From Geobacter sp. SVR (lineage in GTDB: Bacteria; Desulfobacterota; Desulfuromonadia; Geobacterales; Pseudopelobacteraceae): 64,000 nt of DNA. This document shows, piece by piece, positions 10,877 to 20,028 of this stretch. The number at the start of each line of letters is the position of its first letter. The stretch's first letter is position 1. The notes beneath the pieces are model-generated. The model was not told where the DNA came from and ran no database searches. It saw only the letters and a program-made list of their open reading frames with translations. Made by a program: the position numbers and the translations under genes. The stretch lies in the NCBI RefSeq assembly GCF_016865365.1, contig NZ_AP024469.1:1355001-1419000 (forward strand), written 5' to 3'.

Positions 10877-11243
10877 GGGATGACTCTGCATGGAACAGAT
10901 GATTTGAAAAGTATCGTGATTTTTAGCAGAAATCCCTCTGTTTAACAACTGTTGCCGCGCCTGACGGGAATAGGGGCCCGGTTGTTCGGGAGAACATGGC
11001 TGTGACAACTGCGTGTGTGCTGCCGCATCGCAGGCAGTTTAGGGCACGCCGGCCCAGGCGTCAAACATTATCCGTCCCTGCATCCTGGGGAACAACGCTC
11101 TCATCGAGGGGCAATGCGGATATCCCATCTGCAGGACAGACAGGGAAGGGATAGTCGCGATGATTCCGGAAAACGGCGGGACGTGCTGAAATCATGACGG
11201 CATGGCGGTACTTGCAACGCCAGGACCGGCATGGGCGGAGGGC
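10877..11243. other. Intergenic stretch with no gene recognised
   Basis: About 370 bases between the amidase start and the epimerase stop, both on the minus strand. I see no RNA gene, strong hairpin or protein-like frame with a ribosome binding site. It presumably holds the promoter for the amiC-rsmI-ugd-uxs-ftsB run. Confidence 0.5.
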
Positions 11244-12353
11244 TCACGGGAAGGCCGGCTCCACTCCGATGCCGTGACCGGCACGCTGCAGATCGAATCT
11301 GCCGCTGTCGTCCAGGTAGGGTGAGCGCGCCAGGTCGCCTGCGATGAAGAAGGTGGTGTCCAGGTCGATGAAATCGAAGCAACCCAGGCCGGCAGCGAAG
11401 TGGGCCGCTGCCGTGATCGACAGGGCCCCCTCTATCATGGCCCCCAGCATGAGGGGGATCGAGTGGGCGGTTGCCAGCCGGGCTATCTCGGCCCCCTCCA
11501 GAATACCGCTTTTCATGAACTTGATATTGATGGCGCTGACTGCGCCATTGTCGATGGCTCGCCGGGCAGTGGCCAGCGAGCCGACGCTCTCGTCGGCACA
11601 GACCAGGGTGCCGCTGCCTTCCAGGGCGGCCGTGACTGCGGTCAGGCCTTCCCAGTCGTGCTTCGGCACCGGCTGTTCGAGCAGTATCGGCCGAACGCCG
11701 CCGCGATCGAGCCTGTCCATGAACGCCAGCATCTGCTCGGCCCCATACCCCACATTGGCGTCCAGGGTCAGCTCGCAGCCGGGCACGATCTCCTGCACCG
11801 CCAGGACGCGTTGCAGGTCCAGTTCCTCGTCCCTGCCGATCTTGATCTTGAATCGAGTAAAGCCCCGCGCCGCGTAGTGCCGGGCAGCAGCACGAGCCTC
11901 TTCGAGGGTGCCGATCACGACGGTGATGTCCGTGGCAAAGGAAAGCCGGGGCCGATGCGGTGCCGCCGGCGCGAAGAGCTGGTGGAACGGGATCCTCCTC
12001 ATGCGGGAGCTGATGTCCAGCAGTGCCATTTCCAGGGCTGCCAGGGCCGCATGATTGCCCGCCAGGGCAGGGGCGAACTCGCGGCAGGCTTCCTCCGGAT
12101 CGTCTGTTTTGCGCCCTTTCAGGGATGCGGCAACAGTCTGCAGGTTGGCCAGGGTGGTGGCCACGGTTTCGCCAGTAATGTGGGCGGCAACGGCCGCTTC
12201 GCCGTAACCGCAGATGCCGTCGCTGGTCCGGAGTCTGAGAAAGACGTTTTCCAACTCATCGTGCTGCCCGGTGGCAATCCGAAACGGCGTGATCATCGGT
12301 GCTTTGATGATCGCAACTGTTGCATCCTCTATCGCAAACGAGACTCTTTCCAT
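11244..12353 (-). CDS. Enolase-superfamily dipeptide epimerase (L-Ala-D/L-Glu epimerase type)
   Basis: A 369-residue member of the muconate-lactonizing/mandelate-racemase group. The catalytic KxK is in RFKIKIGRDEELD. Metal ligands are the Asp of LTLDANVGY, the Glu of LLEQPV and the Asp of LVCADESV, and the second catalytic lysine is in INIKFMKSG. The lysine pair on opposite barrel faces and the PMITPFRIATG N-terminus resemble L-Ala-D/L-Glu epimerases that recycle murein dipeptides. The start at 12353 has GGAGGT seven bases upstream; an ATG ten codons earlier has no such site. The exact dipeptide substrate cannot be read from sequence. Confidence 0.85.
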   Translation of the reverse strand: MERVSFAIEDATVAIIKAPMITPFRIATGQHDELENVFLRLRTSDGICGYGEAAVAAHITGETVATTLANLQTVAASLKGRKTDDPEEACREFAPALAGNHAALAALEMALLDISSRMRRIPFHQLFAPAAPHRPRLSFATDITVVIGTLEEARAAARHYAARGFTRFKIKIGRDEELDLQRVLAVQEIVPGCELTLDANVGYGAEQMLAFMDRLDRGGVRPILLEQPVPKHDWEGLTAVTAALEGSGTLVCADESVGSLATARRAIDNGAVSAINIKFMKSGILEGAEIARLATAHSIPLMLGAMIEGALSITAAAHFAAGLGCFDFIDLDTTFFIAGDLARSPYLDDSGRFDLQRAGHGIGVEPAFP

Positions 12354-12514
12354 GTCATGCACCTCCAGGGTCGGTAGCAGCATTGAAAATCCATGAAACC
12401 TATATCCAATCTGAACACAACCGGACTGTCCGGCGAATCAGCAATCTTGTGCGCCAGGGGCGGTAAAGTGGTACTTCTCAATTTCAGGTTTGTATCCTGT
12501 TTATCAGTAGTCTG

Positions 12515-13396
12515 CTAAGCCCTGGTGGTGAGCCAGATGCCGGAGAAGATCAGGCCGATGCCGGTTACCTGGAACAGGTGCAGCGACTCCCCCAGGAACA
12601 TGATCGACAGGAGCGTGCCAAAGACCGGCATCAGGTGCAGGAAAAGCCCGGCTCTGTTGGCCCCCACCTGGCCCACCGCCTGATTCCAGAAGATGAAGGC
12701 CAGGACCGAGGGGAAAAAGGCCACATAGAGCAGGCTGGCCCAGGTGGCCGGGCCCGGCGCCATGTGCAGCCCCTGGCCAAGCTCCCAGGCATAGAGCGGA
12801 GCCAGGCCCAGCAGGCCGAGGGCAACGATAGAGGTCAGAAAACTCAAGGGGTGCAGCCCGGCTGGTCGCTGGCGCAGCAGAAAGGTGTAGAGCGCCCAGC
12901 AGGCCACCGCCAGCAGCACCCACAGGTCCCCCCGGTTGACCCGCAGGGCCAGCAGCAGGTCCAGGTCGGCACGGCTGATGATGGTTATCACCCCGGCAAA
13001 GGAGATCGCCATGCCCACTGCCTGGAGCTGCGTCACCCGCGTTCCGCCGAAGAGCCGCGACAGGGCCACAATGGCGATCGGGATGATGGAGTTGAGCAGG
13101 ATAGCATTGGTGGCGGTGGTGCTCTGCAGGGCGATGTAGACGAACGTATTGAAGCAGAATACTCCCAGGAAGGCGAACATGGTCAGGGCCTTCCAGTTGT
13201 GGCGCAACAGAGGCCATTGGTCGCGGACGTGGCGCCAGGTGAAGGGGAGCAGGATCAGCAGTGCACCGGCCCAGCGCCAGAAGACCAGGCTGACCGGCGG
13301 AATGCTGGCATGCACGGCCCGGCCGAGCACGAAATTGCCGGCCCAGAAGAGCGTGGTAAGCACGAGCAGCAGGTAGGGGGAAAGGGGGATGTGCAT
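12515..13396 (-). CDS. EamA/DMT-family transporter (drug/metabolite exporter)
   Basis: Integral membrane protein of 293 residues with ten predicted helices in two repeated EamA halves. The first half contains LFWAGNFVLGRAVHASIPPV and the second DLWVLLAVACWALYTFLLR, each beginning with the family's W-A/W motif. The end of each half has the AQxxG-like GMAISFAGVITI and IGLIFSGIWL. Members export metabolites or drugs; this substrate is not predictable. It stands alone, with 160-280-base gaps on either side. Confidence 0.9.
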   Translation of the reverse strand: MHIPLSPYLLLVLTTLFWAGNFVLGRAVHASIPPVSLVFWRWAGALLILLPFTWRHVRDQWPLLRHNWKALTMFAFLGVFCFNTFVYIALQSTTATNAILLNSIIPIAIVALSRLFGGTRVTQLQAVGMAISFAGVITIISRADLDLLLALRVNRGDLWVLLAVACWALYTFLLRQRPAGLHPLSFLTSIVALGLLGLAPLYAWELGQGLHMAPGPATWASLLYVAFFPSVLAFIFWNQAVGQVGANRAGLFLHLMPVFGTLLSIMFLGESLHLFQVTGIGLIFSGIWLTTRA

Positions 13397-13673
13397 GGAC
13401 CATGGGCCTCTGGTAAAATCGTGAATCCGTGAGGCCTTCCAGCCTTCACTTGCTACCCAAACCTCTGTTCCTGCGTTTCTGAAGCAAGAGACTGTTCAGT
13501 GGAGGTGACGCGGCATTGTCGGCATGAAGCGGGGCCGGCGGCGATCAAGCCCCGACATGACGCTCGCTTCGGCTTTATACCTCACGAATTCAGGAGAATC
13601 TGAATCTGCCGTCCGCACTCGTGCAGGCCGGGGGCGGGGCGGCGCGAGATACAGTACAGCATTGCGGTGCCGG

Positions 13674-14411
13674 TTACCAGCCCAATGCCAGCTTCACTCC
13701 CAGTATTCCCCCCACCGTCAGGAACAGCACCCGCACAAATCCGTACCCTTTGCTGCGTCCCAGGCGGGAGCCGCAATACGCCCCCAGCACGGCACCGGCC
13801 GTGGAGGGTATCATCAGTCTGGCGTCGGCAAAGCCAGCGGATATGAAGATGACCACCGCGAAACAATTCCAGGTGAAGGCGACCACGTAGTAGTAGCCAA
13901 GGGCGGTGAGCAGAGGGAAACCGCGGGTCTTGGAGAGCAGGAACGAGGTGAACAGGCCGTTGCCGGAGCCGAAGAACGACTCGTAGGCCCCCAGCGGAAA
14001 GGCCAGCATGCCGGTTACCCGGCGCGAGAGGCGCGGTTCCGATTCCCCGCGGCCCAAGGAGGGACTGAAACCTACTGCGGCAACCAGGCTGATGATGACA
14101 AGACCGACCACGCGTTTCAGGATCTGTTCGTCCACCCCTCGCACCAGGAGCGTGCCGGCATAGGCCCCGGCCAGTCCGAAGCCGATCATGAACCTGATCA
14201 GCGTCCAGTCGAGGGTCTTGCCCCGGAGATAGTTGCGCGCCGCGATCAGGGTCCAGGCGGCGCCGTTCATCTGGTTGGAGGCGATGGCGACCGGCAGGGG
14301 AAAGCCGAGGGACAGCCAGACAGGCGTGGTCAGCATGGCAGCCCCGGCGCCGCTCATGGAGCTGAGTAGCGAGGCCAGGAATGCGACGGAGAAGATGATG
14401 GTGGTGTGCAT
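13674..14411 (-). CDS. TauE/SafE-family sulfite/anion exporter
   Basis: Integral membrane protein of 245 residues with about eight helices and the duplicated TauE/SafE pattern: FLASLLSSMSGAGAAMLTTPVWLSLGFPLPVAIASNQ in the first half and LAFPLGAYESFFGSGNGLF in the second. The family exports sulfite, sulfoacetate or similar anions, and several members act in sulfonate or cysteine metabolism. No adjacent sulfur gene supports a specific substrate, although cysDN lies 13 kb away. Confidence 0.85.
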   Translation of the reverse strand: MHTTIIFSVAFLASLLSSMSGAGAAMLTTPVWLSLGFPLPVAIASNQMNGAAWTLIAARNYLRGKTLDWTLIRFMIGFGLAGAYAGTLLVRGVDEQILKRVVGLVIISLVAAVGFSPSLGRGESEPRLSRRVTGMLAFPLGAYESFFGSGNGLFTSFLLSKTRGFPLLTALGYYYVVAFTWNCFAVVIFISAGFADARLMIPSTAGAVLGAYCGSRLGRSKGYGFVRVLFLTVGGILGVKLALGW

Positions 14412-14468
14412 GCGTGATGTTTTCCAGCGGGGCAGGGATCTGCCGGGATGCGTAATACTGTTACCTTA

Positions 14469-15617
14469 CTAATTACTTTTCTTCGATAGGTCGCGGAATC
14501 TCTTGATCGCAACCTTCCGAACCTCAGAATGGGGGTCTTCAAGTGAAATCGTGTTAGCCAATTCTTTATTGGTTAATTTTTGAACTGCAGCAATTCTAAC
14601 TATTTTAGAGGTGTCTTCGAGTGCAGATTTAGAGATAATGACTTGATCATCGATTTTTGATATTGCTATGCTTCTTATGGTAGCATCAGCATCCCCGATG
14701 GCAAGACGCTTCAAAGTATCCTCTTTACTCAATCTTATTGTGGCAGCGGCTCTAACATCTGCATTATCATTACTAGTGGCTATTTTCTCCAACAAATCCA
14801 TGTCAGTTAATTTCAGGGTGGCCGCTTCCCTTACATCACTTTTCATATCCTTAATGGCCAACTCTTTAAGCGTCTCCATGTCATTTAGACAACTTGTTGC
14901 TGCTCTTCTCACGTCTGTTTTGGGATCGGACAAGGCGAATCTTTTAATTACCTCTTGGTCGTTCGTTCGGCAAATCGCTATTTCCCTTATATCTGCGATT
15001 TCATCCTTCAATAGTTTCCGTAATACCGCTTGATTTTCAAGTCTTGCCACAGCAGCTTTCCTAACATCTGTCTTTTTGTCGCTGAATGCTATGTTTTCAA
15101 GTAAAGTCTGATTGGTTATGCGACTTACAGCAATTTCTCTGACATCATTATCAGTATCATTTTTATATAAATGTTCTAAGGTTTCTTGATCTTCAATTCT
15201 TGAGACAGCAGCTTTCCTTACATCATCATTCTTTTCATTTTTAGCTATATCGCTGATCAATTTCTTATTCTCAATCTTTTCTACAGCAGCAGCTCTGACA
15301 TATGAATCGCTATCTCTCAGTGCAAATTGTTCAAGAAGAGATTGATCCGATATGTTTGCGACCATGTCTCTTCGAATAATTCTGTTTGTATAAACTTGAG
15401 TCAGCTTTTCAAAATGCTCAGAGGTGTAGCCCCTAAAAGGGCCTAGGAAAACACACTCCGCGATATCCTGACTAGCTTCTTCAAATGTAGCTTCGTTCGG
15501 ATAGAAGTTGCCGCCGGTGAGAAATCCTATAGTGCCATTTAAAATTATTGCGAATGGGTCAGGGGTGTAATTAAGTGAAACAAATTTTGTTTCTTTGGGT
15601 TTGACATGGATTTCCAT
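14469..15617 (-). CDS. Tandem ~24-residue helical repeat protein (LRV/HEAT-like)
   Basis: A 382-residue protein, strikingly AT-rich next to its neighbours. From about residue 85 to 375 it is built from roughly twelve repeats of 23-24 residues with consensus DVR-x-AA-x-x-[RK]-[IL]-x-[ND]-x-x-x-L-x-x-[IL]-A. Examples are DVRKAAVSRIEDQETL and DVREIAVSRITNQTLL. This resembles leucine-rich repeat variant or short HEAT-type solenoids that bind proteins. The first 80 residues (HVKPKETKFVSLNY...) are not repeats. They look like the missing second half of the domain in the preceding lipoprotein, so the pair may be one interrupted gene. The ATG used here has no clear ribosome binding site. Function unknown. 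Confidence 0.7.
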   Translation of the reverse strand: MEIHVKPKETKFVSLNYTPDPFAIILNGTIGFLTGGNFYPNEATFEEASQDIAECVFLGPFRGYTSEHFEKLTQVYTNRIIRRDMVANISDQSLLEQFALRDSDSYVRAAAVEKIENKKLISDIAKNEKNDDVRKAAVSRIEDQETLEHLYKNDTDNDVREIAVSRITNQTLLENIAFSDKKTDVRKAAVARLENQAVLRKLLKDEIADIREIAICRTNDQEVIKRFALSDPKTDVRRAATSCLNDMETLKELAIKDMKSDVREAATLKLTDMDLLEKIATSNDNADVRAAATIRLSKEDTLKRLAIGDADATIRSIAISKIDDQVIISKSALEDTSKIVRIAAVQKLTNKELANTISLEDPHSEVRKVAIKRFRDLSKKSN

Positions 15618-15631
15618 ATCGTGAGCAGGGT

Positions 15632-15898
15632 TTAATAAGTACTTATAAAATGTTTTCCTTCTTTGGCATTAACCAAAAAGTACCCATTGTTGAAAAGCTT
15701 ACCTAATTCGTTTCCATCAAAACTGATTTTAACTATAGTTGGGCTTCCACCAATACTACTTCTGTATATTATTACCGTACCTTCATCATCTGCTGGTTCG
15801 TTCTTCAATAGAAGGCTGTCGCCATATTTGATACCGGTGGCGCTACACCCACACAAAATTGATAAATAGAGAATCAAGACGGAAAATATCTTATACAC
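15632..15898 (-). CDS. Short lipoprotein, DUF2846-like, probably truncated by a frame change
   Basis: An 88-residue protein starting at GTG behind GGAGAG. A hydrophobic signal ends in the lipobox ILCGC (Cys18). The body (GTVIIYRSSIGG...VKISFDGNELGKLFNNGYFLVNAKEGKHFIS) follows the pattern of DUF2846 lipoproteins: a Y-R strand, a G-x-x-x-G-x-L turn, then P/E-G-x-H. Known members continue for another strand rich in K/P-G/E-x-x-Y/F-V. Here the frame stops just after that point, and the continuation sits in the shifted frame entering the next gene. The family assignment is from memory of the pattern and moderately certain. Confidence 0.6.
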   Translation of the reverse strand: MYKIFSVLILYLSILCGCSATGIKYGDSLLLKNEPADDEGTVIIYRSSIGGSPTIVKISFDGNELGKLFNNGYFLVNAKEGKHFISTY

Positions 15899-15917
15899 GG
15901 TGCTCTCCAGTCTTTAA

Positions 15918-16034
15918 TTAATATAATATTATTCTAGCCGCTGAGTTCCATAGCAGAACGACAATGACGGCTAGGGCGATAAGGTAGTAGTAATGACTTC
16001 CGATCCAGTTGAGCAAGTTTACGGCATCGTACAT
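15918..16034 (-). CDS. 38-residue single-pass membrane peptide
   Basis: A small frame too short for most gene callers. It begins ATG seven bases after GGAGGAG and reads MYDAVNLLNWIGSHYYYL then IALAVIVVLLW, ending ARIILY. One membrane helix occupies about residues 15-30, with a YYY cluster at its start. It stops 19 bases before the lipoprotein GTG, so it is probably the first gene of a three-gene unit with the lipoprotein and the repeat protein. Evidence is the strong ribosome binding site and hydrophobicity only; no homologue is recalled. Confidence 0.6.
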   Translation of the reverse strand: MYDAVNLLNWIGSHYYYLIALAVIVVLLWNSAARIILY

Positions 16035-16456
16035 GGACTCCTCCTGGGAATGTTGTGCATCAAAAGTTCAACTATACTGAGTCAGGCACGACTATCATCC
16101 TCTTCCAAACAGCTCGAATTCCGGAGATGTACCTTTATCTGCAGCATAATATCAAATACTACATTGCGCTTGAGGTTATCCGCCGCTGCTCTATCGTCGA
16201 CTTACTCCTTGTAGCCAGCCCTTTGCAGAAAAAGCAAAACCCCGTGCTCCATCACAGGAACGCGGGGTTTCGTCTTGAATCGGGGAATTGTAAGATCCAG
16301 TTGTCCTCACGATAGCTCCGCAGACATTGTCACGATATGCCGCCGCAGCTAATCAAATTTACTCACAAATGTCAAGTTGGGTTAATTATATTTCCTTGCA
16401 TATGGATATGCCACCCCTTCGATAGTGATTTTTCAGGTCTGCTTCCAGTGCCCACA
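16035..16456. other. Intergenic region, contains repeat copy A
   Basis: About 420 bases between the small membrane peptide and the BenE-like gene. Roughly 16228-16345 is one copy of a 120-base direct repeat described separately. The remaining part is AT-rich with no gene recognised and probably carries the promoter for the peptide-lipoprotein-repeat-protein unit. Confidence 0.55.
16228..16345 (-). repeat. ~120-base direct repeat, copy A (terminator-like hairpin plus conserved tail)
   Basis: Copy A matches copy B at 18239-18360 at roughly 80% by eye, in the same orientation. Each contains AACCCCG...CGGGGTT, a hairpin followed on the minus strand by TTGCTTT, and a shared tail with TTGTAAGATCCA and TGTCCTCACGATA. 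Both copies sit just past a minus-strand gene end (BenE-like here), so they can serve as terminators, but homology extends well beyond the hairpin. Confidence 0.75.
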
Positions 16457-17617
16457 TTATTTTTTGATACTGGGAATGATCTTCAGAACGGCCAGGCCGA
16501 GCAGCAAACCCCAGAATGCGCTGCCGATGCCCCTCAGGGTAAGCCCCGATGCGGTCACAAGGAACGTAATGAGCGCCGCATCCCGTTCCCGCTCGTCATG
16601 CAGCGCACCTGCCAGGCTGTTGCCGATTGTTCCGAGCAGGGCTATGCCGGCTATGGCCGCTACCAGCTCTTTCGGCAGGGCGGCAAAAGCAGTGGCCACG
16701 GTCGCGCCGAGCAGGCCGGTGATCAGGTAGAAAATGCCGGCCCAGACCGCTGCAAGATAGCGGCGTTCCGGATTTACATCCGCTTCCGGGCTCATGCAGA
16801 TGGCGGCGGTAATTGCGGCCAGATTGAACTGGAACCCGCCGATGGGCGCCAGCAGCACTCCGGTCAATCCGGTCCAGCCGATCAGCGGCGAGACCGGAGT
16901 CTGGTAGCCATTGGCACGCAGAACGGCAATACCCGGCACATTCTGGGAGGCCATCGTGACAATGAACAGGGGGATCCCGACGCCGATGATTGTCGAAATA
17001 GTAAACGTCGGTGCGATAAATACCGGTTGGGCAAGGGTAAGTTTCACAGCCTCGAAGTGAATCAATCCGCCCTGGGCCGCCCAGACCAGCCCGCCCAGGA
17101 AGGTCAGCGGAATCGTGTAGCGTGAGTTCAGTCTTCGGCCAGCCAGGTAGATAAACAGCATCAGGGCCACCAGCCGGAGCTGGGAACCGAGGGACACGAA
17201 GACTCCCATACCGAAGCGGAGCAGTACACCCGCCAGCATGGCAGCGGCCAGCGATTTCGGGACATGCTTCATGAGCGTCTCGACCCAGCCGGTTACACCG
17301 CAGATCGTGAGCAGCGCCGAGGCGAAGATAAAGGTGCCGATGGCGTCGCTCATCGGCAGACCGACCAGTGCCGTGGCCAGCAGCGCCGCACCCGGCGTCG
17401 ACCATGCGGTCAGCACCGGACTGCGGAAATACAGCGAGAGACCGATGCAGGTCAAGGCCATGCCCACACCCAGGGCCAGCAGCCAGGAACTGACGTGGGC
17501 AGGGCCGGCACCAGCAGCGGTAGCCGCCTGGAAAACTATGGCGGCCGAACTGGTGTAGCCGACCAACACCGCGATAAAGCCGGCGGAAATATGCGAAGGT
17601 CCGAAAAATTTACCCAT
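16457..17617 (-). CDS. benE: BenE-family benzoate/proton symporter
   Basis: Integral membrane protein of 386 residues with about twelve helices. It matches BenE: ISAGFIAVLVGYTSSAAIVFQAA at the N-terminus, then PVLTAWSTPGAALLA, VPKSLAAAMLAGVLLRFG and LVWAAQGG, with VTMASQNVPGIAVLRANGY in the second half, a family hallmark. BenE proteins import benzoate or related aromatics. No catabolic genes are adjacent, so the substrate is uncertain. AGGAG lies 12 bases before the ATG, a long spacing. Copies of the 120-base repeat flank this gene and the DinB gene. Confidence 0.88.
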   Translation of the reverse strand: MGKFFGPSHISAGFIAVLVGYTSSAAIVFQAATAAGAGPAHVSSWLLALGVGMALTCIGLSLYFRSPVLTAWSTPGAALLATALVGLPMSDAIGTFIFASALLTICGVTGWVETLMKHVPKSLAAAMLAGVLLRFGMGVFVSLGSQLRLVALMLFIYLAGRRLNSRYTIPLTFLGGLVWAAQGGLIHFEAVKLTLAQPVFIAPTFTISTIIGVGIPLFIVTMASQNVPGIAVLRANGYQTPVSPLIGWTGLTGVLLAPIGGFQFNLAAITAAICMSPEADVNPERRYLAAVWAGIFYLITGLLGATVATAFAALPKELVAAIAGIALLGTIGNSLAGALHDERERDAALITFLVTASGLTLRGIGSAFWGLLLGLAVLKIIPSIKK

Positions 17618-17726
17618 AAATACTCATTGCTCCTATTGTGATGCCATTACCCAGATACGAATAAACCCGAATAATAAGAAGACGCACCAATTCCCCTGAT
17701 CATGACTGTTATCTGTTCAATTATTC

Positions 17727-18224
17727 CTATTCCAGCCTTGTCAGATACGTGTTCCTTGTCAACCAAAGCTCCTCCATCCGGTACATATGCCAGTGATCAT
17801 GCATCAGTACATGCCTGGTCAGAATATAGAGCGAATACTCTTCATATTCAGGATGGGTCGCCCTCTTTTTCCAGGCTATGTCATCTGCACTTTCCAGGAG
17901 CTGCAGTTGACTGGCTCTGTTACAGGAGAACAGTTCGAGCGCAGATTCGATGCTCATGCGAAGGGGAGTATCAGATTCTGCCTTGTCTTCACCGGGAATG
18001 AACGGGACAAACTCGGGATTATCCTCATTCATGAACCGTTCAATACGCTTTGTCAGCATGGGTTGCACGTCGGCCAAATGGCTGTAATGCTCTGCAACAG
18101 TCCAGAAGCCTTCACCTCTTCGTAAATCCAGTTTGGCTTCCGGAATGGACAGGACAAACTGAGATAGTATTTTGGGCGACCGTCTGAGCGATTCCAGCAG
18201 ATCCGGAATGTCTTGCACCTTCAC
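17727..18224 (-). CDS. DinB-superfamily protein
   Basis: A 165-residue four-helix-bundle protein starting at GTG behind AGGAGA. Metal-ligand histidines in the DinB/YfiT pattern are visible: WTVAEHYSHLADV in helix 2, and LTRHVLMHDHWHMYRMEEL near the C-terminus. The superfamily includes thiol transferases dependent on bacillithiol or mycothiol; members in organisms without those thiols have unknown roles. It lies between the HD-GYP gene and the BenE gene, separated from the former by repeat copy B. Confidence 0.82.
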   Translation of the reverse strand: MKVQDIPDLLESLRRSPKILSQFVLSIPEAKLDLRRGEGFWTVAEHYSHLADVQPMLTKRIERFMNEDNPEFVPFIPGEDKAESDTPLRMSIESALELFSCNRASQLQLLESADDIAWKKRATHPEYEEYSLYILTRHVLMHDHWHMYRMEELWLTRNTYLTRLE

Positions 18225-18238
18225 TCTCCTTTCATGGA

Positions 18239-18360
18239 GAAAGCAAAACCCCGCGCTCCATCATAGGAACGCGGGGCTTCATCTTTGAACCAGGGAAATT
18301 GTAAGATCCAATTGTCCTCACGATAACTCCGGAAGGCATTTACACGATATTTATGCCGTC
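18239..18360 (-). repeat. ~120-base direct repeat, copy B
   Basis: Second copy of the element at 16228-16345, in the same orientation. It contains GCCCCGCG...CGCGGGGTT, then TTGTAAGATCCA, TGTCCTCACGATAACTCC and CACGATAT. It falls between the HD-GYP stop and the DinB ribosome binding site. Some of the differences from copy A fall in the stem: A has CCCCGTG facing CGCGGGG, B has CCCCGCG facing CGCGGGG, so B pairs better. Confidence 0.75.
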
Positions 18361-18425
18361 TGAATTAAGTATGCCGCCTCCGGATTCGCCTTAAAATGAA
18401 CTTGTCCGGGAGACGCTAATGGCCG

Positions 18426-19370
18426 CTATTTAATGGCAGCCTGGAACGCATAGAACAGGATGGTCGAAAAGCACTTGTAGGTCTCGTCGCCGATGATCTT
18501 GAAGGCCTCCTCCGGGGTTGAAGCCTTTCGGGTGGGTCTGTCGGATATGAGGGTACAGTACATGTCCGCCAGACCGATCACCTGGGTCGATACCCTGATT
18601 TCGTCCCCCTTGAGGCCGCCGGGATACCCGCCGCCAAAATACCGCTCATGGTGATGACGCACGGCATCCAGCACCAGATCATTGTAACGGCCGTTTTTCC
18701 TCAGGAATATATACCCCTCGAATGGATGGCGCCTGATCTCCTCCAGGGTGGGAGAGGTCCAGTAATCCTTTTCTTCCGTAATGTCCTTCAGAATGAGGGA
18801 CATGCCGATGTCGTGCAGCATTCCGGCCATGCCGATATCAACCAGATCATCGCGTTTTTCCGGAAAAAGCTTTGACCATACCAGCATGGACATGACCGCG
18901 ACCTGCATGGAGTGCCTGATGGCGAAGACCGAGCCGCTCCCCAGGGTCTTGAGCAGGTCGGCGATGCTCTGCGACTCCGAGATATACTGGGCCAGATGGC
19001 CGCTCAGATTCCTGCACCGTTCGGCATCCTGGGCCTTCTCAGGGTCTACGAAGATATTTTTCAGATAGTTTGTGGTGGCCTGGGTCAGCGCGGCGGTTTT
19101 CGCCATCTGGTCCATATCGCACCGCTCCAGGATCTCAGCCAGGTTTTCCTCGGTAAAACGGGCGACCTCCTCATGGTCTCCGGACCTGACATAGAGTATA
19201 CGCGTATTGCTGGCCAGCAGCCGGTCACGATCGACTTCGGTGAATGGAAGCGATTCTTCCTTGTAAAGGACATGTTTTCCCCAGGTTTCGGTAAAGAGCG
19301 CCACTCGGGGGAAGATATCGGGCAGCACGCATGCCAGGGAAACAGGCTCATATATATCATGGGTTCCCAT
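18426..19370 (-). CDS. HD-GYP domain protein
   Basis: A 314-residue protein with an N-terminal region of about 130 residues of unclear fold (contains VLPDIFPRVALFTETWGKHVLY and LYVRSGDHEEVARFTEENL), then an HD-GYP phosphodiesterase domain. The HD dyad is in MLHDIGMSLIL, followed by HPFEGY, VRHHHERYFGGGYPGGL (GYP intact) and VIGLADMYCTLISDRPTRKASTPEEA. HD-GYP enzymes hydrolyse cyclic di-GMP, or cGAMP in some Geobacter relatives. The start at 19370 is chosen for GAGGTG upstream; the longer frame is unsupported. No receiver domain is present, so the input signal is unknown. Confidence 0.88.
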   Translation of the reverse strand: MGTHDIYEPVSLACVLPDIFPRVALFTETWGKHVLYKEESLPFTEVDRDRLLASNTRILYVRSGDHEEVARFTEENLAEILERCDMDQMAKTAALTQATTNYLKNIFVDPEKAQDAERCRNLSGHLAQYISESQSIADLLKTLGSGSVFAIRHSMQVAVMSMLVWSKLFPEKRDDLVDIGMAGMLHDIGMSLILKDITEEKDYWTSPTLEEIRRHPFEGYIFLRKNGRYNDLVLDAVRHHHERYFGGGYPGGLKGDEIRVSTQVIGLADMYCTLISDRPTRKASTPEEAFKIIGDETYKCFSTILFYAFQAAIK

Positions 19371-19641
19371 CGATTCACCTCGGTAAAGGGGGGGAGCAGT
19401 TTGAAAGCGAACGATACCAATGGCTGGTACGGTTTCATTTTGATTACGCCATTGCAGCGATAAATGCAAGGAGGAGTGCTATTGGATGTTGCCCACGGAT
19501 TTTAAGAAAAAAATTTAAAATTAAATTGAGAAAATCATTGGGGCAGGATTGCAATAACTGTAAATCCATAGCCCGGCAAAAAAGTTCCTTCAACCGCTCC
19601 TGCCCTTTTCGGCCAGCGGTGCGTCCCTCACGACCGTAATA

Positions 19642-19962
19642 TCAGGCTGGCGTCGCAAGCTTAAGCCCGACAATACCGGCAATAATCAGCGCAACACTGA
19701 TGAGCCGACCAGTGTTTGCGGGCTCGCCAAAGAGTACGACGCCTAACGCTACCGTCCCGACGGCTCCGATCCCGACCCAGATGGCGTACGCAGTGCCCAC
19801 GGGAAGGGACTTCATGGCAATGCCCAGCAACCAGAGACTGATAAGCATCGACAGAATAGTCCCCACACTGGGCCACAACCGGGTGAAACCTTCCGTGTAC
19901 TTCAATCCGATTGCCCAGCCGACCTCAAATAACCCCGCAATAATAAGAATGACCCAAACCAT
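19642..19962 (-). CDS. sugE: SMR-family guanidinium exporter SugE/Gdx
   Basis: A four-helix small multidrug resistance protein of 106 residues. The proton- and substrate-binding glutamate is Glu13 in [23 protein letters not shown], the SugE/Gdx form rather than Emr[22 protein letters not shown] and [11 protein letters not shown] complete the helices. The start has GGGAGG about eight bases upstream; the frame opens further upstream, but that part is the riboswitch. The guanidine-II riboswitch in its leader fixes the likely substrate as guanidinium. Confidence 0.93.
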
Positions 19963-19983
19963 GCAGTTTTCCTCCCGCAAATC

Positions 19984-20028
19984 CGAGGTCGTCCTCGATG
20001 TGTAGTGGAGCGGTGAGGTCGTCCCCAC
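19984..20028 (-). promoter_or_regulatory. Guanidine-II (mini-ykkC) riboswitch
   Basis: In the sugE leader on the minus strand there are two short hairpins, each capped by ACGA. They are GTGGGG-ACGA-CCTCAC (20013-20028, one G-T pair) and CGAGG-ACGA-CCTCG (19984-19997). Two ACGR-capped stems a short distance apart, just ahead of a ribosome binding site and an SMR exporter gene, are the defining mini-ykkC arrangement. Ligand binding is expected to free the site GGGAGG at about 19970-19975 and turn on translation. Confidence 0.9.

What the first reader, a model, noticed from the sequence alone, without database searches (positions are those of the whole stretch)
14469..15898. Lipoprotein and solenoid-repeat protein look like one gene split by a -1 frame change
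The lipoprotein frame ends at GKHFISTY-stop. The next gene's frame, read upstream of its ATG, gives LLNPAHD then MEIHVKPKETKFVSLNY, which supplies exactly the strand that DUF2846-like proteins need after G-K-H. Moving one base back at ACTTATTAAAC joins the frames without a stop. The result would be a lipid-anchored protein with a twelve-repeat solenoid. Either a recent frameshift has broken it, programmed shifting occurs, or the split is ancestral.
Basis: partly seen in the sequence, partly recalled or inferred. Interest (0 to 1): 0.55.

Follow-up and report, generated by a model that had tools for sequence, protein, structure and literature searches.

The report
One solenoid lipoprotein gene, frame-broken
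Two neighbouring genes in an environmental bacterium look like the two halves of one membrane-anchored, repeat-built protein whose reading frame is broken in the middle of its first domain, most likely by an ordinary mutation or a sequencing slip.

Summary
On the minus strand a lipoprotein frame (15632-15898, 88 aa) stops at GKHFISTY; the next frame (14469-15617, open upstream to 15668) carries on in the -1 frame into a solenoid of eleven full units of 25-26 aa plus a partial one. A profile from 12 intact DUF2846-type lipoproteins matches the first frame at positions 11-98 of 154 (55.9 bits) and, weakly, the start of the second at 106-149. Joined in the -1 frame they match 11-149 (69.2-69.8 bits), best when the switch lies at the end of the first frame; 0 of 3000 shuffled joins score as high (best 69.1). 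So one beta domain appears cut in two. Some solenoid relatives carry their own lipoprotein signal, and intact DUF2846 domains occur ahead of other C-terminal domains. I found no intact DUF2846-solenoid fusion, nor the two as neighbouring genes. No canonical slippery heptamer lies in frame. Best reading: one ancestral gene with a single recent frameshift or a sequencing error. Programmed shifting is unlikely but not excluded. Interest is low: the lesion is ordinary, though the domain pairing may be unusual.

The parts
15903..15908 (-). Shine-Dalgarno-like GGAGAG, 4 nt before the GTG start of ORF1
   Evidence: read from sequence
15848..15898 (-). Probable lipoprotein signal peptide (residues 1-17), lipobox LCG-C with Cys18
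   Evidence: read from sequence, no predictor run; Cys18 is invariant in the alignments with intact DUF2846 homologues
15632..15898 (-). ORF1, 88 aa: signal peptide plus the first part of a DUF2846-type domain, ends GKHFISTY-stop
   Evidence: own profile positions 11-98 of 154, 55.9 bits
15614..15640 (-). Stretch in which the frame changes (ORF1 fits the profile to codon 87; the ORF2 frame fits from its residue 8-9)
   Evidence: profile score highest when the frames are joined after codon 87-88
14469..15617 (-). ORF2 as called from its ATG (frame open from 15668): end of the DUF2846-type domain, then the solenoid
15450..15790 (-). DUF2846-type domain as it reads across both frames
   Evidence: Pfam PF11008 match from ORF1 residue 37, below cut-off; own profile match to residue 63 of the ORF2 frame
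14472..15380 (-). HEAT/LRV-like alpha solenoid, eleven full units of 25-26 aa and one partial unit
   Evidence: PF02985 63.4 bits, PF13646 34.3 bits; 10-residue means 67-96, mostly 84 or more; 1lrv, TMt 0.57
15577..15620 (-). Two predicted RNA hairpins just after the junction (15603-15620, which contains the ORF2 ATG, and 15577-15593)
   Evidence: 101 nt, z -3.4; window 15569-15638, z -3.8, lowest of 69 windows; overlapping neighbours only -1.0 to -1.6; function unknown

Best explanation
This was one gene for an exported, lipid-anchored protein: a lipoprotein signal peptide, a DUF2846-type beta domain, and a C-terminal HEAT/LRV-like solenoid of twelve units. It was to be lipidated at Cys18 and to hold a protein-binding solenoid in the periplasm. 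A single net -1 frame change near the end of ORF1, inside the beta domain, now separates the two halves, either as a recent mutation in this strain or as an error in the assembled sequence. If the change is real, the cell makes a short lipoprotein with an incomplete domain, and a solenoid that has no export signal and probably little translation of its own. Shown: domain continuity across the frames, otherwise open frames, the solenoid fold in a model, and no ribosome-binding-like site seen before ORF2. Inferred: lipidation, location, partner binding, and that the lesion is recent.
For: Own profile of 12 intact homologues: ORF1 matches 11-98 and the start of the ORF2 frame 106-149 of 154, in order and with matching spacing. 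Joined, 69.2-69.8 bits over 11-149, best with the switch at codon 87-88. tblastn of the joined N-terminal 155 aa runs through the junction into intact L011 (query 8-125, E 2e-9 among the loci then held). In 395 phylum genomes, 37 of 37 listed DUF2846 places have no stop in the matched stretch and 34 of 37 reach profile position 75 or beyond of 92, where ORF1 alone stops at 55. DUF2846 is an N-terminal module elsewhere: with a caspase (L008, L059), with PEGA and a sub-cut-off HEAT match (L060, L062), with a sub-cut-off PDZ match (L064). Some solenoid relatives are lipoproteins: strict lipobox in 5 of 26, among them Geobacter sp. OR-1, of the window's order. No SD-like sequence before ORF2, while ORF1 has GGAGAG. 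In the ORF2 model the solenoid is confident and the first 90 residues, the orphaned half domain, are not.
Against: No intact DUF2846-solenoid protein was found. Pfam's own DUF2846 model gains little from the join (18.7 to 20.4 bits, cut-off 34.3), and the whole ORF2 frame scores only 2.5 bits on my profile. One of 3000 shuffled joins came within 0.1 bit. Nine of the 12 profile members were first found with the joined sequence as query, though 11 of the 12 genes also ring with PF11008 alone. In 3 of 26 solenoid-bearing genomes, Geobacter sp. OR-1 among them, DUF2846 exists as a gene elsewhere, not fused to the solenoid. The gene has no match in the two other genomes of the genus, so selection on either half could not be measured. 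The lowest folding z-score in the gene lies right after the junction, which a simple lesion does not explain.
Confidence: 0.82

Rival explanations
1. Sequencing or assembly error: the living strain has an intact gene and the record carries a net one-base loss (or two-base gain). This is a sub-case of the best explanation.
For: A single lesion in about 1.4 kb of otherwise open frame.
Against: No long homopolymer at the junction. Ten large genes of the window give the expected Pfam domains, but this is a weak control: they were chosen as long open frames. Raw reads and a second isolate were not available.
Confidence: 0.35
2. A real mutation has recently inactivated the gene in this strain (the other sub-case of the best explanation).
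For: Single lesion, no further decay; the gene sits in a low-GC stretch (37-41% in windows from 14500 to 15999, against 56-66% at 11000-14499) and has no match in either congener, as expected of an acquired, dispensable gene.
Against: Cannot be separated from a sequencing error with one record.
Confidence: 0.47
3. Programmed -1 frameshifting makes the full protein together with a short lipoprotein.
For: Both frames are otherwise open; the window with the lowest folding z-score of the gene (-3.8, of 69) lies at the junction, with a hairpin that begins 11 nt after the stop.
Against: No X XXY YYZ heptamer in frame in ORF1. The profile prefers frame 0 up to codon 87-88, which leaves only the last codons and the stop for a slip, with no slippery run there. 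No relative with the arrangement was found.
Confidence: 0.06
4. Two genes by origin: a short lipoprotein and a separately translated, coupled solenoid protein.
For: ORF2 has an ATG 14 nt after the ORF1 stop; many solenoid relatives show no export signal (by eye); DUF2846 and solenoid are separate genes, not neighbours, in Geobacter sp. OR-1.
Against: The N-terminal part of ORF2 looks like the missing end of ORF1's domain; no SD-like sequence before the ATG, which lies in a predicted hairpin; no DUF2846 ORF beside the solenoid in 52 stored loci.
Confidence: 0.08

Closest known systems
DUF2846 lipoproteins (Pfam PF11008)
   Same: Lipobox Cys, YR motif, G-K-H turn, following strand and the C-terminal segment line up across both frames.
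   Different: Split across two frames here, followed by a solenoid, and below the Pfam cut-off (20.4 against 34.3 bits joined).
Lipid-anchored HEAT/LRV-like solenoid of Geobacter sp. OR-1 (L110, identical to L006 over 343 aa)
   Same: Lipobox followed by the same kind of about 26-aa repeat; 36% identity over ORF2 residues 166-304.
   Different: No DUF2846 domain in the same frame; one unbroken frame of 343 codons.
Leucine-rich repeat variant protein, PDB 1lrv
   Same: Highest TM-score over the target (0.57) of the 50 Foldseek rows listed; the only PDB sequence match up to E 0.01 (E 1.5e-4).
   Different: Shorter; the iron-sulphur site reported for that protein (recalled) was not sought here.
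DUF2846-caspase lipoproteins (L008 from G017, same family of bacteria as the window; L059)
   Same: DUF2846 as an N-terminal module ahead of a larger domain.
   Different: The C-terminal domain is a caspase-type peptidase, not a solenoid; the frame is intact.

Membership tests
DUF2846 (PF11008) | Score over Pfam's gathering cut-off | tested here: not met
   18.7 bits for ORF1, 20.4 joined, cut-off 34.3
DUF2846 (PF11008) | Alignment over nearly the whole domain with intact DUF2846 lipoproteins | tested here: met
   only when the two frames are joined: own profile 11-149 of 154, 69.2-69.8 bits
Bacterial lipoprotein | Signal peptide with lipobox ending in Cys | tested here: met
   MYKIFSVLILYLSILCGC read from sequence; Cys invariant in the alignments; no signal-peptide predictor was run
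HEAT repeat proteins (PF02985, PF13646) | Score over Pfam's gathering cut-off, several repeats | tested here: met
   63.4 bits (cut-off 23.5) and 34.3 bits (cut-off 27.7), three stretches each; solenoid model
LRV (leucine-rich repeat variant) | Sequence and fold match to 1lrv | tested here: inconclusive
   E 1.5e-4 by sequence, TMt 0.57, but no Pfam LRV family among those listed up to E 10
Programmed -1 frameshift gene | Slippery heptamer X XXY YYZ in the zero frame | tested here: not met
   none found in frame in ORF1
Programmed -1 frameshift gene | Stimulatory structure about 5-9 nt downstream (spacing recalled) | tested here: inconclusive
   hairpin begins 11 nt after the stop; window z -3.8, neighbours -1.0 to -1.6
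Programmed -1 frameshift gene | Conserved arrangement in relatives | tested here: not met
   no relative with the split found

The most novel reading that the evidence does not exclude
A non-canonical, structure-assisted -1 frameshift (no slippery heptamer, paired hairpins after a stop codon) inside a beta domain that makes a short and a long, solenoid-bearing form of the same lipoprotein.
Probability: 0.05. Interest if true: 0.55.

Novelty: new variant of a known kind. Interest (0 to 1): 0.2.

Why it matters
As a frameshift it matters little beyond annotation: the two genes should be recorded as one interrupted lipoprotein gene, not as two proteins. As an architecture, it puts a DUF2846 module ahead of a HEAT/LRV-type solenoid, a pairing I did not find intact in the searches named here, and it ties the poorly known DUF2846 lipoproteins to exported bacterial solenoids. 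If a product across the junction were ever found, it would be an unusual recoding site.

Tried and rejected
Intact fused homologue: sought with the joined protein or its parts in 57 genomes, the window's own included, 141 of the order, 395 of the phylum, 277 of the class, 127 of the class of G334, genome contigs by peptide patterns, plasmids and viral contigs, and DUF2846 in the 26 genomes behind the solenoid loci. None was found. Limits: of the 37 DUF2846 places I printed nine longer frames and scanned four of these with Pfam; one long frame (G151, 550 aa) and most frames of 150-215 aa were not scanned for a second domain.

L090 matched ORF2 residues 12-389 and looked like a fused candidate, but its frame has no DUF2846 match to my profile; rejected.

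Two-gene arrangement: six-frame scans of 34 solenoid loci and then 52 (some overlapping) with the DUF2846 profile gave one weak hit (E about 0.01), a 57-residue frame cut by the end of L096, about 2.1 kb beyond the solenoid. Read it is a lipoprotein signal peptide only, and PF11008 does not ring in that genome (G775). Some loci are cut by contig ends or hold masked stretches, so their neighbours were not fully seen.

Synteny: the neighbouring TauE-like gene has an 80% relative in G007, but nothing else of window 8001-24000 matches the 16 kb around it, so no empty-site comparison was possible.

Rfam: no match at the gathering score in 12000-20000. Literature: DUF2846 is in two papers of the library. 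In PMC10792529 I saw two passages: its protein Bd1399 was annotated DUF2846 but its structure relates to DUF4360. In PMC9020721 (two passages) it is only a neighbouring gene. 'Leucine-rich repeat variant' gave 557 papers, 15 listed, mostly medical, none opened; 'LRV repeat' with lipoprotein, and HEAT repeat with lipoprotein and Geobacter, gave none.

Full report
Observation. On the minus strand, ORF1 (15632-15898, GTG start, 88 aa) is a lipoprotein-like frame ending GKHFISTY-stop, and ORF2 (14469-15617) begins 14 nt after its stop. The ORF2 frame is open upstream of its ATG to a TAA at 15669-15671, so the two frames overlap by 37 nt. Stepping back one base after any codon from 77 to 88 of ORF1 gives 476 aa without a stop. 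The coordinates and wording of the finding are right.

Domains. Pfam finds a partial DUF2846 (PF11008) in ORF1, profile positions 2-55 of 92, E 0.0018, below the cut-off; and HEAT and HEAT_2 in ORF2 above their cut-offs. NCBIfam has nothing for either up to E 1. The solenoid consists of eleven full units, ten of 26 aa and one of 25, plus a partial unit. An AlphaFold2 model of the ORF2 frame alone is confident over the solenoid (10-residue means 67-96 beyond residue 90, mostly 84 or more) and poor over residues 1-90 (means 30-43). Foldseek against the PDB lists PP2A scaffold subunits and other HEAT or armadillo proteins first, and 1lrv at rank 9 with the highest TM-score over the target among the 50 rows shown (0.57). 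1lrv is also the one PDB sequence match up to E 0.01 (E 1.5e-4).

One domain across two frames. Intact DUF2846-type lipoproteins were found in the same phylum. They run on beyond the point where ORF1 stops, and most end with a short segment that lines up with NEATFEEASQDIAECVFLG of ORF2. I built a profile from 12 of them, without the window's protein. Nine of the 12 were first found with the joined sequence as query, a possible bias, but 11 of the 12 genes also ring with the Pfam model alone. ORF1 matches positions 11-98 (55.9 bits). The first 90 residues of the ORF2 frame match 106-149 at 6.7 bits, just above the best of 2000 shuffles (6.3; 1510 of them were listed); the whole 389-aa frame scores 2.5 bits at the same place. 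Taken alone this half is weak; the strength comes from its fit behind ORF1. With the frames joined the match covers 11-149. I tried 29 switch points (codons 60-88), of which 12 (77-88) give an open frame; the score rises from about 54 bits at codons 77-80 to 69.3 and 69.8 at 87 and 88. In a control, 0 of 3000 joins to shuffled ORF2 sequence reached the real 69.2 bits, though the best was 69.1; 3 of 3000 matched to position 140 or beyond. ORF1 followed by the other two frames gave 53.5-53.6, and ORF1 followed by ORF2 from its ATG gave 63.4. The Pfam model itself gains little (18.7 to 20.4 bits). Taken together, ORF1 and the start of ORF2 are most simply two parts of one domain, and frame 0 is the ancestral frame up to about the ORF1 stop.

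Family evidence. In 395 genomes of the phylum, 32 have DUF2846 at E up to 0.001; the 37 listed places have no stop in the matched stretch, and 34 reach profile position 75 or beyond. One of the weakest (G188, L078, printed) looks like another kind of protein; G151, also weak and of the same frame length, was not read. Longer examples carry a caspase (L059, and L008 from the window's own family of bacteria), PEGA with a sub-cut-off HEAT match (L060, L062) or a sub-cut-off PDZ match (L064) behind DUF2846, so N-terminal DUF2846 ahead of something else is a normal architecture. For the solenoid, a scan of genome contigs with two peptide patterns gave 26 loci. A strict lipobox with a hydrophobic stretch occurs in 5 of 26 (L088, L092, L102, L103, L110). 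By eye, two more have a looser lipobox (L095, L104) and four have an export-like N-terminus without one (L094, L098, L101, L107); the other 15 look cytoplasmic, are cut by the end of the stored stretch, or are masked. L110 is Geobacter sp. OR-1 (order Geobacterales), identical over 343 aa to L006 from G051, a genome of the window's order; the window is therefore from Geobacterales by inference. None of the 26 solenoid frames matches the DUF2846 profile. In the 26 genomes behind these loci DUF2846 rings in 3 (G771, G777, G789); the frames there are 161-279 aa, none as long as the solenoid frames of those genomes. G789 is the genome of L110: that relative has a DUF2846 gene (161 codons) and a solenoid lipoprotein (343 codons) as separate genes. 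A six-frame scan of 52 stored solenoid loci gave one weak hit that is only a signal peptide. So the intact fusion was not found, and neither was a version with the two as neighbouring genes.

Expression. ORF1 has GGAGAG 4 nt before its GTG; I see nothing similar before the ATG of ORF2, and that ATG lies in a predicted hairpin. The 70-nt stretch 15569-15638 has the lowest folding z-score (-3.8) of 69 windows along the gene, while the windows overlapping it most score -1.0 to -1.6. There is no X XXY YYZ heptamer in frame in ORF1. I take the hairpins as an unexplained detail; they are the only positive support for programmed shifting.

Context. The gene lies in a stretch of 37-41% GC (windows from 14500 to 15999) between TauE-like and BenE genes of about 60-64%. 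Among 56 other genomes examined for each half, only one matched ORF1 (G017, the DUF2846-caspase protein) and one matched ORF2 (G051, the lipoprotein solenoid); neither congener matched. The gene may have been acquired horizontally. Ten large genes of the window give their expected Pfam domains. That is a weak control for assembly quality, since I picked long open frames, 10 of 115 listed ORFs of 150 aa or more.

Conclusion. Most likely a single ancestral gene for an exported, lipid-anchored DUF2846-solenoid protein, interrupted once. Whether the break is in the organism or only in the record cannot be settled with one genome.

Noticed in passing
window 16228-16338 and 18237-18350: Two direct copies (86% over about 110 bp; 90-92% in the pieces) of an intergenic element with a GC-rich inverted repeat, flanking the BenE gene and the 17727-18224 ORF; a search of the genome with 14400-16900 found only these two.
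   Followed up: partly
window 15577-15620: Two adjacent predicted hairpins, the first enclosing the ATG of ORF2; the window with the lowest folding z-score in the gene.
   Followed up: partly
L008 (G017), L059 (G364): Lipoproteins that join a DUF2846 domain to a caspase-type peptidase; in L004, the same place as L008, a second caspase-like ORF with ankyrin-like repeats (by eye) lies just upstream.
   Followed up: no
G454 contig C93, 12315-15041: Five DUF2846 matches in a row within about 2.7 kb.
   Followed up: no
L088-L113: Bacterial (and one archaeal-titled) records from many phyla with long arrays of a similar 26-aa LTDQAxLAxVA...VRxAAVEK repeat; some are lipoproteins, several others begin with a shared motif like GLFxPxW.
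   Followed up: partly
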